From Campylobacterales bacterium (lineage in GTDB: Bacteria > Campylobacterota > Campylobacteria > Campylobacterales > Sulfurimonadaceae), in the NCBI GenBank assembly GCA_016938735.1, contig JAFGUB010000007.1, forward strand, positions 1 to 64,000: a stretch of DNA of 64,000 nt. Reading direction: 5' to 3'. The position numbers were made by a program, and so were the translations under genes. This document shows positions 27,338 through 30,902 of the stretch, in pieces (position 1 is the first letter of the stretch; every line of letters starts with the position of its first letter). The notes beneath the pieces were generated by a model. The model was not told the DNA's origin, ran no database searches, and saw nothing but the letters and a program-made list of their open reading frames with translations.

Positions 27338-27589
27338 ATGCAAGCGATTTTTTATTCACAAGCAAGAAACAATTTAAGAGAGATCATCAATAAAGTATGC
27401 GACGACTTCGATGAGTATGTGATTACGACCAAAGACGATAAATCGGTCGTGATCCTTTCCTATGAGGAGTACCGCGCGATGAAAGAGACGATGTACCTGC
27501 TCTCATCAAAAACCAATCGCGATCGACTTAATGACGCCGTAGATCAGATCGAAAATCTACAATTTAGCAAAAGAGATATTGAGGTATGA
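27338..27589 (+). CDS. YefM/Phd-type antitoxin
   Basis: An 83-residue protein with the Phd/YefM fold: N-terminal DNA-binding part (FYSQARNNLREIINKVCDDFDEYVITTK), the strand VVILSYEEYRAMKETMYLL, and a charged C-terminal tail that wraps the toxin. It overlaps the toxin gene by four bases. It would neutralise the ribosome-dependent mRNase and repress the operon with it. Confidence 0.9.
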   Translation: MQAIFYSQARNNLREIINKVCDDFDEYVITTKDDKSVVILSYEEYRAMKETMYLLSSKTNRDRLNDAVDQIENLQFSKRDIEV

Positions 27590-27846
27590 TCATCGGTTTT
27601 GCCGATAGAGGCTGGGAAGATTATCAGTATTGGGTGCAGAGTGACAAAAAAATAGTTAAAAGAATCAACCTCATTCTACAAGATATCAAACGCAATCCCG
27701 ATGACTCCGACGGACTTGGTAAACCTGAGAGGCTCAAAGAGAACTATAGCGGTTATTTTTCAAGAAGAATTACGGCAGAACATAGGCTTGTTTATAAAAT
27801 CATCGAAGATATTATTGTTGTGGCTCAATGTAGATTTCACTATTAG
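27586..27846 (+). CDS. YoeB-type mRNA interferase toxin
   Basis: An 86-residue RelE-fold toxin. The conserved start (FADRGWEDYQYW), basic centre (RINLILQDIKRNP), LGKPERLKENYSGYFSRRI and the catalytic end AEHRLVY and CRFHY match YoeB, which cuts mRNA in the ribosome. Its last 35 bases overlap the convergent transposase gene end. The pair forms the left edge of the accessory island. Confidence 0.92.
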   Translation: MIIGFADRGWEDYQYWVQSDKKIVKRINLILQDIKRNPDDSDGLGKPERLKENYSGYFSRRITAEHRLVYKIIEDIIVVAQCRFHY

Positions 27847-28507
27847 CCAACTTTATAACTTTTGGCCTTCCTCGTGCATTCAGCGTCGCCATTAGCCCGA
27901 GCCGCTGCGCGGTCTCAATTTGCCATGCTTCATCTCCCAGCGGACTTTGTCGATTGACGCTGTTGCGCACTCTTTCGAGTTCAAATAGTGACAAAGCGGT
28001 ATTGACCCTCTCGATCCAGTCACTTCCAAGCGCAACATACGGTTCATGCAGCAGTGCGCGGTTATGATGGATGCGCTCATGCAGCGACGCGTACATGTAC
28101 TCTTCCGCTTTTTTCACCAAACCTGCACGCAGCGCATTAGCTTCAATGTAATGCAGCAACGTTACATAGTACGACTCCTGCTGCACCAAAAAGCTTTTGT
28201 AACGCCCCTGCCAGATATGCCCAGATGTTTTGTTTTTCTTATGATAGTGGCGCACATGCGAGGTCATCACCCACTGCATAAAGCGGCTTAAGCTCCCCTC
28301 GCGCTGCGGTGAGAGCAGCAGATGAAAATGGTTGGGCATCAGGGCGTAGGCGTGCAGTTCGACACGCTCTTTGAGCTTTGCTTTTGCGAGCAGATCGAAA
28401 AAGTACTCATAATCTTCGGCATCGTCAAAGACCTGCATGCGCATATTGCCACGGTTGATGAGATGATAGATTCCACCGACTGTTTCACCTCGGGCTATGC
28501 GGGGCAT
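27812..28507 (-). CDS. REP-associated tyrosine transposase (RAYT, IS200/Y1 type)
   Basis: A 231-residue Y1 transposase. The metal-binding HUH motif is HFHLLLS (residues 60-66) within the family block ALMPNHFHLLLS, and the catalytic tyrosine lies in YYVTLLHYIEANALRAGLV near residue 120, so it looks intact. RAYTs are single-copy domesticated relatives of IS200 transposases that spread short palindromic REP elements. AAAGGAG precedes the ATG and TATAAT (28538-28543, reverse strand) gives a -10 element. The repeats described to its right are the likely REP partners. Confidence 0.9.
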   Translation of the reverse strand: MPRIARGETVGGIYHLINRGNMRMQVFDDAEDYEYFFDLLAKAKLKERVELHAYALMPNHFHLLLSPQREGSLSRFMQWVMTSHVRHYHKKNKTSGHIWQGRYKSFLVQQESYYVTLLHYIEANALRAGLVKKAEEYMYASLHERIHHNRALLHEPYVALGSDWIERVNTALSLFELERVRNSVNRQSPLGDEAWQIETAQRLGLMATLNARGRPKVIKLANSEIYIEPQQ

Positions 28508-28616: not shown

Positions 28617-29036
28617 TCAGTAAGTCGCTGAGAGCTGATGCTCCAATGCTAGAGCTATGAGACGCGATCTATTGATGTTTGCTGCTTTGGCGTAACGGTC
28701 GGCTCTTTCTAATAACATTTGAGGGATTGTGATGTTGACTCGAACCGCATGTTCTTTTGTTCTGCGAGAAATGATAGCCGGATTCGGTTCGATCATCATC
28801 AGCAAACATCCTTCCGCCTCCTCTTTCGCATGGTTTAGATCAACCGCCGGAGCCTCTTCATTATCGTTGATCAGTTCGGAGAGATGAAGACTTAGCGCCT
28901 CTTTTGCCATAGTGATTGCTTCTTCAAGATCATGACCGGCAGAGATACAACCGGCAACATCAGGGAAAAATACGCTGTATCCTCCATCGCTTGTTTCTTC
29001 GAATACCGCTGGATATGCTTTTAACCATTCAACCAT
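28617..29036 (-). CDS. hicB: HicB-type antitoxin
   Basis: A 139-residue antitoxin. The N-terminal partial RNase H fold has the family pattern YPAVFEETSDGGYSVFFPDVAGCISAGHDLEEA; the C-terminal part (VRVNITIPQMLLERADRYAKAANINRSRLI) is a ribbon-helix-helix DNA-binding domain. It would block HicA and repress the operon. It overlaps hicA by 16 bases, in the order hicA-hicB. Confidence 0.93.
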   Translation of the reverse strand: MVEWLKAYPAVFEETSDGGYSVFFPDVAGCISAGHDLEEAITMAKEALSLHLSELINDNEEAPAVDLNHAKEEAEGCLLMMIEPNPAIISRRTKEHAVRVNITIPQMLLERADRYAKAANINRSRLIALALEHQLSATY

Positions 29037-29239
29037 AATATAAACTCCTCCTTGGATGAATTAAGCTGTTTGAGGATGCTTGATAGTGTCTTTGGAGCTA
29101 TCTCTCGCTTTGGATGTGGGATAGTAGCTTTACCTTTGAGGATTGGATGCTTAAAATGCTTGTGGCTTCCCTCTTGAGAAACTTCAAACCAACCCATTGC
29201 CAAAGCAAAACGTATCAACTCTTTTGATGTGAAACTCAC
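29021..29239 (-). CDS. hicA: HicA-type mRNA interferase toxin
   Basis: A 72-residue double-stranded RNA-binding fold toxin with the active histidine in GSHKHFKHP and the following strand GKATIPHPKREIAPKTLSSILKQL. HicA cuts mRNA and tmRNA independently of the ribosome. Length and motif are complete, so the module looks functional. Confidence 0.93.
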   Translation of the reverse strand: MSFTSKELIRFALAMGWFEVSQEGSHKHFKHPILKGKATIPHPKREIAPKTLSSILKQLNSSKEEFILWLNG

Positions 29240-29276: not shown

Positions 29277-29350
29277 CCTTTTAGGTGAAAGTCGGCAAGT
29301 AAAATAAATTTTATATTACTGGGGACTTGGGACATTTGAACTCTTTTTAG

Positions 29351-29420
29351 GGGTTACATGTAGAGCATTATATCATAAAGTAGCCTGTCCCTATTTTTAA
29401 AGTAGCCTGTCCCTATTTTT
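29351..29420. repeat. 45-bp repeat (copy 2) followed by a 22-bp tandem duplication
   Basis: The second copy of the transposase-upstream unit occupies 29351-29395. The 22-base AAAGTAGCCTGTCCCTATTTTT occurs at 29377-29398 and again, identically, at 29399-29420, followed by shorter TGTCCCTATTTTT and TGTCCCCATTTT pieces. This marks the left edge of the DUF3137 fragment. Confidence 0.85.
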
Positions 29421-29459
29421 GTGTCCCTATTTTTGTCCCCATTTTCTGCATCCATCACC

Positions 29460-29993: not shown

Positions 29994-30048
29994 AACTCGC
30001 TAAGCCAGAAACAGCGTATTGAACCCCCTGAAAATGGGGACAGAAAAT

Positions 30049-30114
30049 GGGGACGAGGCTACTTTAGTAAAAGGGGACAGAGTAAAAGCATAAAAGGAAA
30101 AATGGGGACAGGCT
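30049..30114. repeat. Inverted copies of the GTAG/GTCCCC repeat right of the DUF3137 fragment
   Basis: GGGGACGAGGCTACTTT at 30049-30065 is the reverse complement of the AAAGTAGCC(T)GTCCC unit with one extra base, and AATGGGGACAGGCT at 30101-30114 is a further inverted copy. Together with the units at 29377-29420 they enclose the DUF3137 fragment as an inverted-repeat-bounded segment of about 690 bases. Confidence 0.75.
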
Positions 30115-30123
30115 GAATTTCAT

Positions 30124-30366
30124 TCACGCCACCTTCTCATCCGCCACATAAAACATACTCTCAATACTGAGATGATAGTCCAGCTCTTCCCACTCTATCC
30201 CTGTTCCCATGCAGATAAAACGGTAGTTTTTGAGGATGCTTAGGCTCGCTTGCTCTAGGGGTTTGTACCAGTGCAGCGGTGTAGAGATGATGCGGTCATC
30301 CATCAGTGTTACATGTAAGTAGTTGTCATCAAAATGGACTGTCTTACCTTTGAGTAAACCACTCAT
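30124..30366 (-). CDS. DUF2442 domain protein
   Basis: An 80-residue soluble protein with the DUF2442 pattern: VHFDDNYLHVTLMDDRIISTPLHWYKPLEQAS followed by WEELDYHLSIESMFY. The family usually pairs with a DUF4160 protein in what is suspected to be a toxin-antitoxin-like module; here the DUF4160 partner gene overlaps its start but is broken. A TTACATGTAA copy encodes part of YLHVTL. Confidence 0.85.
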   Translation of the reverse strand: MSGLLKGKTVHFDDNYLHVTLMDDRIISTPLHWYKPLEQASLSILKNYRFICMGTGIEWEELDYHLSIESMFYVADEKVA

Positions 30367-30577
30367 GCCATCTCCTTATAAATTCCTCTTGATGTTGCGA
30401 TGCGATCAATAGCGCCTCTTTGAGCTCTTTGGGTTTTAGTGAACTTTGTGTTACATGTTAGCTTCTCAGCTCAATCTTGGCAAAAGTATCACCTTTCATG
30501 ACATGCACATGCATCGGCTCATGTTCGTTGGCATAAAAGAAGAACTTAAACCCGTTGTAATGGAGCAGTGTTGGCAT
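30344..30577 (-). pseudogene. DUF4160 gene with one nonsense codon
   Basis: One reading frame of 77 codons gives a complete DUF4160 protein (start MPTLLHYNGFKFFFYANEHE; end LKPKELKEALLIASQHQEEF then a Trp-rich tail) except for a TAA at 30458-30460. The stop lies within TAACATGTAA; the common palindrome TTACATGTAA in this frame would read Leu-His-Val and restore the protein. A single T-to-A change therefore explains the loss. The frame ends inside the DUF2442 gene, with a 23-base overlap, as in intact pairs. Confidence 0.82.
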
Positions 30578-30677
30578 TCTTATTCCCAAAAAACGTGAAA
30601 ACCTATTGTATGGGTTCGAGGCTGAATCTATTCTGATTCAAAGACAAGGAAATGAAAAAAAACGGGGACAAAAAAAC

Positions 30678-30696
30678 GGGGACGAGGCTGCTTTAC
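30678..30696. repeat. Inverted repeat copy at the 3' edge of the hepT remnant
   Basis: GGGGACGAGGCTGCTTTAC is a copy of the island repeat with one change from GGGGACGAGGCTACTTT. A second GGGGAC lies just to the left at 30664-30669. A more decayed copy (GGGGCGAGGTTGCTTGC) lies near 31028-31044. Confidence 0.65.
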
Positions 30697-30902
30697 GCTC
30701 ATTTTTCCATACCATCAACTCCTTTTTCATACGTTCGATTTCATTTTTAAGCAGCGGAAACTGCTCTTTTATGACCTTCCAGATGATCTCTTCATACACT
30801 TCAAAATACCAGTGAATCAACGTCATTCCCTTCTACAAAGCGATCGATCTTGTCGATACCTTGGCACATATCCTCAAGATAGAGCAGATAATTGCGCTTC
30901 AT
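30697..30902 (-). pseudogene. hepT toxin remnant with internal deletion
   Basis: The frame from the ATG at 30902 reads MKRNYLLYLEDMCQGIDKI followed by DRFVEGNDV, the start of HepT-type RNase toxins, but closes at 30801. In the next frame, from about 30828, LIHWYFEVYEEIIWKVIK matches the end of the same family. The middle of about 60 residues, including the arginine of the catalytic RX4-6H motif, is missing, and the junction is out of frame. The 3' end runs into an island repeat. Confidence 0.75.

What the first reader, a model, noticed from the sequence alone, without database searches (positions are those of the whole stretch)
30344..30577. DUF4160 gene killed by one base change inside a palindrome copy
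The frame is complete except for TAA within TAACATGTAA; restoring the common TTACATGTAA gives Leu-His-Val and an intact protein. Its partner DUF2442 gene is intact and overlaps it. It shows a mutation of the iterated palindrome with a visible cost, and leaves a possible antitoxin-like partner alone.
Basis: seen in the sequence. Interest (0 to 1): 0.5.

Follow-up and report, generated by a model that had tools for sequence, protein, structure and literature searches.

The report
Dead toxin gene beside intact antitoxin
A small bacterial toxin gene is cut short by a stop codon that lies inside a damaged copy of a short DNA palindrome repeated about a thousand times in the genome, while the gene for its antidote survives; losing such a toxin is ordinary, but the palindrome itself is unusual.

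Summary
Minus strand 30577..30344 is a DUF4160 frame with one internal TAA (codon 40) inside TAACATGTAA; DUF2442 (30366..30124) is intact and overlaps it. None of 80 relatives has a stop there; 68 have Leu. The pair has the published DhiT/DhiA toxin-antitoxin arrangement, so a toxin has died and its antitoxin remains.

That decay is ordinary. DUF4160 has other premature stops in 4 of 80 relatives, with DUF2442 stop-free in 80 of 80. In the one sampled sister species only the end of the toxin gene is left beside a truncated antitoxin. 'Visible cost' is overstated.

The palindrome reading gains support. TTACATGTAA occurs 1061 times in the genome, mirror control 0. Orthologous copies are intact in the sister in 28 of 38 cases, against 31 of 166 control 10-mers; of 7 alignable inner-mismatch copies, 6 are exact in the sister. 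So the stop probably arose in a palindrome copy, though this site cannot be aligned. The iterated palindrome, which resembles cyanobacterial HIP1, is the more interesting object.

The parts
30344..30577 (-). DUF4160 (DhiT-like toxin) gene, interrupted; 39-codon product from the ATG at 30577 (or 43 codons from a TTG at 30589)
30458..30460 (-). in-frame TAA, codon 40; Leu in 68 of 80 relatives, stop in 0 of 80
30451..30460 (.). palindrome copy with one inner mismatch (TTACATGTTA on +, TAACATGTAA on -)
30124..30366 (-). DUF2442 (DhiA-like antitoxin) gene, intact, 80 aa
30372..30376 (-). AGGAG, likely ribosome binding site of DUF2442, inside the DUF4160 frame and 5 bases before the ATG; 91 bases lie between the stop and this ATG
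   Evidence: read; function inferred
30309..30318 (.). exact TTACATGTAA inside DUF2442 (Tyr-Leu-His-Val); also exact in the sister species and present in DUF2442 of 9 of 80 relatives, so probably a coding coincidence
30638..30902 (-). HepT-like toxin remnant: C-terminal piece 30826..30638 and, by eye only, N-terminal piece 30902..30801 in another frame
   Evidence: C-terminal piece 22.9 bits, just under the 23.5 cut-off; no Pfam hit for the N-terminal piece
28617..29239 (-). neighbouring HicB/HicA pair, open frames
27338..27846 (+). neighbouring YefM/YoeB pair, open frames; the homologous DNA stands next to the DUF2442 remnant in the sister species

Best explanation
The locus is a decayed DhiT/DhiA-type (DUF4160/DUF2442) type II toxin-antitoxin module. 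A base change turned a conserved Leu codon of the toxin into TAA, very probably within a copy of the genome's iterated palindrome, leaving a 39-residue stump that lacks half of the domain. The antitoxin keeps an open frame and what looks like its own ribosome binding site, and is probably still made as a solo antitoxin. The mutation looks young: the rest of the toxin frame has kept its conserved residues. Shown: stop, intact partner, conservation of Leu, decay of the same module in the sister species. Inferred: that the palindrome was complete before the change, that the stump is inactive, and that the antitoxin is expressed.
For: Domains and overlap. Codon 40: Leu 68, Phe 7, Met 2, Ile 2, Glu 1, stop 0 of 80 relatives. 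DUF2442 adjacent in 80 of 80 and stop-free in its aligned part in all 80; DUF4160 has other premature stops in 4 of 80. After codon 40 the window gene matches 4 of 4 columns that are at least 90% conserved, and before it 21 of 21; of columns at least 70% conserved it departs at 1 of 16 after and 2 of 29 before. Sister species G005, contig C240: DUF2442 cut after 56 codons and only the last codons of DUF4160 left. Inner-mismatch palindrome sites in this genome: 6 of 7 alignable ones are exact in G005, and the seventh is a different inner mismatch there. Published activity: DhiT inhibits growth and DhiA relieves it (PMC8198452, passages); in the Thermus module a plasmid lacking the second (DUF2442) gene gave no transformants while one lacking the first (DUF4160) did (PMC12724237, passages).
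Against: No orthologue with a complete palindrome at this site was found; relatives code Leu-x-Val with similar letters (one mismatch in L107, two in L047 and L068), so part of the resemblance to the palindrome comes from the protein. NCBIfam's DhiT model is matched below its cut-off (38.4 against 100 bits). The conserved columns after codon 40 are few and do not date the break well: 70 of 76 open relatives also match all four. G005 is only 74% complete, so a second copy there could be missing. Raw reads could not be seen.
Confidence: 0.8

Rival explanations
1. Sequencing or assembly error: the gene is intact in the organism.
For: Only one codon interrupts the frame and the conserved columns downstream are kept. 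The genome is a 62-contig draft.
Against: Inner one-mismatch palindromes recur in this genome at places where the sister has the exact word (6 of 7), so such changes do happen. The same module is decayed in another way in the sister species, so its loss is tolerated in the genus.
Confidence: 0.08
2. The stop came first, and the likeness to the palindrome is a coding coincidence (Leu-x-Val-Thr) or arose later in a dead gene.
For: Relatives carry 10-mers with one (L107) or two (L047, L068) mismatches at this place. The DUF2442 copy of the palindrome looks coincidental (9 of 80 relatives). The order of changes cannot be read because the sister's copy lost the gene.
Against: Expected inner one-mismatch words by chance: about 2.9 in 264 kb against 11 seen; of the 7 that could be aligned, 6 are exact in the sister and the seventh is a different inner mismatch.
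Confidence: 0.15
3. The TAA is read through or the two halves are made as a split protein.
For: The frame continues with conserved residues.
Against: No relative among 80 has a stop at this codon; the gene's own end codon is also TAA; the sister's copy lost most of the gene. A start site for the second half was not looked for.
Confidence: 0.02

Closest known systems
DhiT/DhiA (DUF4160/DUF2442) type II toxin-antitoxin module of Dickeya dadantii 3937 (PMC8198452) and the Thermus Persistence Enhancing Module (PMC12724237)
   Same: Same domain pair, toxin gene first; overlapping genes, as in Dickeya.
   Different: Toxin frame has a premature stop here; sequence falls below NCBIfam's DhiT cut-off; no activity tested.
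HIP1 (GCGATCGC) and alternate HIPs of cyanobacteria (PMC4390886; abstract, section 2.6 and part 1 of 2 of section 3.4 read)
   Same: A short palindrome repeated throughout the genome; one-base deviations concentrated at the first and last position (73 of 84).
   Different: Other sequence (TTACATGTAA, 10 bases, A+T-rich in DNA of 53% G+C), other phylum, about one copy per 2.7 kb against about one per kb in that paper; the linked methyltransferase is only a correlate here.

Membership tests
DhiTA type II toxin-antitoxin | toxin with DUF4160 domain | tested here: met
   PF13711 66.7 bits, cut-off 23, read with X at the stop
DhiTA type II toxin-antitoxin | antitoxin with DUF2442 domain next to the toxin, toxin gene first, genes overlapping | tested here: met
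   PF10387 45.6 bits, cut-off 23.9; 23-base overlap; DUF2442 adjacent in 80 of 80 relatives
DhiTA type II toxin-antitoxin | NCBIfam NF048015 DhiT equivalog cut-off | tested here: not met
   38.4 bits against 100: same domain family, not the DhiT equivalog as NCBI draws it
DhiTA type II toxin-antitoxin | intact toxin reading frame | tested here: not met
   TAA at codon 40; hence a decayed module
DhiTA type II toxin-antitoxin | growth inhibition relieved by the partner | not testable with these tools
   needs expression in a laboratory strain
HIP1-like highly iterated palindrome | extreme over-representation of one palindrome | tested here: met
   1061 exact copies, mirror control 0; 98 in 264 kb against 0.08 expected
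HIP1-like highly iterated palindrome | one-base deviations mostly at the outer positions | tested here: met
   73 of 84
HIP1-like highly iterated palindrome | HIP1 sequence GCGATCGC in a cyanobacterium | tested here: not met
HIP1-like highly iterated palindrome | a solitary methyltransferase for a core of the palindrome | tested here: inconclusive
   D12 methyltransferase relatives in 13 of 19 palindrome-rich and 8 of 82 other genomes, but 6 of 19 lack it; specificity unknown

The most novel reading that the evidence does not exclude
TTACATGTAA is a HIP1-like element of several genera of this family of Campylobacterota, kept intact genome-wide by a process tied to DNA methylation (candidate: a D12 methyltransferase next to recO in the four sampled genomes with the most copies). 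Copies that mutate in the core are normally put back or purged; the DUF4160 stop is a rare copy that escaped, tolerated because the toxin was dispensable. Such escaped copies would make the unknown upkeep mechanism of iterated palindromes measurable by comparing sister species.
Probability: 0.3. Interest if true: 0.65.

Novelty: new member of a known kind. Interest (0 to 1): 0.3.

Why it matters
By itself, one more toxin-antitoxin pair that lost its toxin. Its use is as a marker: it is one of few inner-mismatch copies (11 in 264 kb) of a palindrome that the genus otherwise keeps, so it shows a failure of that upkeep. The palindrome itself, 1061 copies in a 2.85 Mb genome, was not reported as an iterated element in anything the paper searches showed (what each list covered is told in the full report). 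It would give a second system, outside cyanobacteria, in which to test how iterated palindromes arise.

Tried and rejected
A conserved internal stop: one search prints '1 TAA' for three of the closest relatives (G084, G011, G063). On inspection this is their ordinary end codon, not codon 40, so the idea was rejected.

Taking the exact palindrome in DUF2442 (30309) as support for the palindrome's spread: rejected, because DUF2442 of 9 of 80 relatives has it too. Two of these nine coincide with sampled genomes, G084 with 4 copies and G063 with 96; for the other seven the number of copies in the genome was not counted.

Methyltransferases: no PF01555 match in the own genome, one PF02086; PF01555 was not searched in the other genomes. 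The link to palindrome number is strong without correction for ancestry (Fisher p 4e-7), but within genus g2 it is not significant (p 0.14). Six of 19 palindrome-rich genomes lack it: G032, G040, G067 (80-83% complete) and G037, G045, G052 (99-100% complete). G052 (340 copies) has no D12 match at all (not among the 50 of 101 with a match). So it stays a lead. Solved structures gave no useful match for the methyltransferase, DUF4160 or DUF2442. Promoter scan: 2 sites found, 2.1 expected, uninformative. Paper searches (10 of 779 listed; 20 of 602 listed) added nothing of use; PMC10714953 only names DhiT-DhiA in a list (passage). PMC12654330 lists DUF4160/DUF2442 in a table (passage).

Dropped rows and limits: one search kept 80 of 165 relatives; all 80 were used. 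The conservation columns leave out the four broken relatives (76 used). Of the 28 of 101 genomes with a methyltransferase match, the 21 with E below 1e-50 were counted as having it; the 7 weaker ones (G030, G045, G074, G075, G088, G093, G098) were counted as lacking it, and of these only G045 is palindrome-rich. In the sister comparison sites not covered over all ten positions were dropped, gaps counted as mismatches, and insertions inside a site in G005 are not seen. L148 and L154 were chosen because they hold inner-mismatch sites, so the number of inner sites is not a rate; 4 of the 11 inner sites of the 264 kb sample, the DUF4160 site among them, were not aligned.

Full report
What is there. 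The minus strand from 30577 to 30344 reads as a 77-residue DUF4160 protein with a single internal stop, TAA at codon 40 (30460-30458). Pfam DUF4160 is matched over its whole length at 66.7 bits with X at the stop. NCBIfam's DhiT toxin model is matched too, but at 38.4 bits, below its cut-off of 100. The DUF2442 gene, 30366..30124, is open and overlaps the DUF4160 frame by 23 bases. It has an AGGAG (30376-30372) five bases before its ATG, and 91 bases separate the TAA from that ATG (read). I infer that its translation does not depend on the toxin.

Relatives. In the family sample, 26 of 101 genomes hold a DUF4160 match. The four closest from other genomes (G084, G011, G063, G100; 61-64% identical) are open at codon 40 with Leu and are followed by an overlapping DUF2442 frame. 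The '1 TAA' that one search prints for three of them is their normal end codon. The window's genome has three further, more distant DUF4160 frames without stops, and G005 has two. A scan of named genomes found 165 relatives and kept 80, from Campylobacterota, Methylococcaceae, Marinobacter and others. Codon 40 is Leu in 68 of 80, Phe 7, Met 2, Ile 2, Glu 1, stop 0. In 4 of 80 the DUF4160 frame has premature stops at other codons (L066, L083, L090, L105; in L083 near the end), while DUF2442 lies adjacent in 80 of 80 with no stop in its aligned part. The search was made with DUF4160, so these figures do not measure how often the toxin is lost altogether.

Age of the break. After codon 40, the window gene matches 4 of 4 columns that are at least 90% conserved, and before it 21 of 21; 70 of 76 open relatives match all four as well. 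With so few columns this says only that decay is not advanced.

The sister species. The only other genome of the genus in the sample, G005 (74% complete), has a remnant of the same module on contig C240: DUF2442 cut after 56 codons and only the last codons of DUF4160, next to an HxlR-like gene (name by eye) and to DNA homologous to the window's YefM/YoeB pair. So both sampled members of the genus have a broken copy of this module, broken in different ways; a second copy in the missing quarter of G005 cannot be excluded. In the window the module stands among other toxin-antitoxin genes: YefM/YoeB and HicB/HicA are open, and a HepT-like gene looks broken (the HepT match of 22.9 bits is just under its cut-off).

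The palindrome. TTACATGTAA occurs 1061 times in the 2.85 Mb genome, its mirror image never. In a 264 kb sample (the window and ten 20-kb stretches; G+C 53%) there are 98 exact copies against 0.08 expected, and 84 with one mismatch. Of these, 73 deviate at the outer position, 4 at the second, 1 at the third, 4 at the fourth and 2 at the central one, against 0.41, 0.67, 1.2, 0.57 and 0.42 expected. The DUF4160 site is a second-position deviation. In the family sample of 101 genomes, 19 have 48 or more copies and the other 82 have 0-31.

Comparison with G005 over 71,329 aligned bases at 81% identity: 28 of 38 exact copies are exact there too, against 31 of 166 other 10-mers of the same composition and 18.7% of all 10-mers (Fisher p 1.8e-10). 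Of 7 alignable sites with one inner mismatch in the window's genome, 6 are exact palindromes in G005 and the seventh is a different inner mismatch. Two of the three stretches compared were chosen because they held such sites; this affects how many were found, not what they are in G005. Hence an inner-mismatch site in this genome is, as a rule, a decayed copy. The DUF4160 site itself cannot be aligned because G005's copy of the locus lost the gene. In the other direction, 4 of the 38 exact copies differ from G005 at two or more bases, so copies are also gained or wholly lost.

A caveat. The protein motif Leu-x-Val at codons 40-42 itself brings the DNA close to the palindrome: one relative has a single mismatch (L107) and two have two (L047, L068). 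The exact palindrome in DUF2442 (30309-30318, Tyr-Leu-His-Val) is found in DUF2442 of 9 of 80 relatives, so some copies are coding coincidences.

What it does. DUF4160/DUF2442 pairs act as toxin and antitoxin in Dickeya dadantii and E. coli (DhiT/DhiA; growth inhibition, relief by the partner, repression of their own promoter; PMC8198452, passages). In Thermus a plasmid without the second gene (DUF2442) gave no transformants, whereas one without the first (DUF4160) did (PMC12724237, passages). I infer that the window's module no longer makes an active toxin and that DUF2442 remains as a solo antitoxin and possibly a weak repressor. A 39-residue stump keeps the FFFYANEHEP stretch but loses the C-terminal half.

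What it resembles. For the gene: a decayed DhiTA-type module, an ordinary end for chromosomal toxin-antitoxin genes (the last part is general knowledge, from no call). For the palindrome: HIP1 of cyanobacteria, where deviations also concentrate at the first and last base and where upkeep by methylation-directed repair has been proposed (PMC4390886; abstract, section 2.6 and part 1 of 2 of section 3.4). The one D12-type methyltransferase found in this genome lies beside recO, as do its homologues in the other three of the four sampled genomes with the most copies (794-1061); in 8 other homologous loci examined recO was not found beside it. Over the sample, relatives of it (E below 1e-50) occur in 13 of 19 palindrome-rich genomes and 8 of 82 others. 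But 6 of 19 rich genomes lack it, three of them 99-100% complete (G037, G045, G052), 8 poor genomes have it, and shared ancestry is not corrected for, so this is a lead only.

In print. The string TTACATGTAA is in 18 held papers, all 18 listed; by title and opening of the abstract none concerns an iterated bacterial palindrome, and none was read. 'Iterated palindrom' with 'methyltransferase' and 'genome' is in 10, all listed, Elhai's HIP paper first and none on Campylobacterota by title. Two wider searches showed only the best 15 of 344 and 10 of 213; among those listed the searched strings (TTACATGTAA, TACATGTA) did not occur. Most subscription papers are not in that library, so a report elsewhere cannot be excluded.

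Verdict. The 'cost' is not supported. The gene finding alone is ordinary; it gains some interest from the palindrome.

Noticed in passing
whole genome; window, 50 sites (e.g. 2574, 14589, 45489): TTACATGTAA is an extreme, conserved iterated palindrome: 1061 copies here, 794 in the genus sister, 866-896 in genus g3, 193-354 in g5, 48-756 in g16, 340 in one g2 genome; 0-31 in 82 of the 101 sampled genomes.
   Followed up: partly
L144 1354-2352 (own genome contig C43, minus strand), L155-L158: The one D12 (Dam-like) methyltransferase found in the genome, adjacent to recO in the four sampled genomes with most palindromes (g1, g3); candidate for palindrome upkeep.
   Followed up: partly
window 30638-30902: Apparently broken HepT-like toxin just upstream of the broken DUF4160; a second dead toxin in the same island.
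   Followed up: partly
window about 29327-29448, 30031-30080 and 30568-30697: Short stretches that recur on many contigs of the genome, with GGGGACA-type repeats where read; a REP-type Y1 transposase lies nearby at 27812-28507 (78.3 bits, cut-off 80).
   Followed up: no
L066, L083, L090, L105: Four other DUF4160 genes with premature stops and an adjacent DUF2442 without stops in its aligned part.
   Followed up: yes
G000:C15:637-864, C4:37334-37543, C24:20614-20823 (own genome): Three more distant DUF4160 frames (28-40% identical) without internal stops in the same genome.
   Followed up: no
G052 (family sample): 340 copies of the palindrome in a genus (g2) where 21 of 25 sampled genomes have fewer than 20, with no D12 methyltransferase match; would help to separate cause from ancestry.
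   Followed up: no
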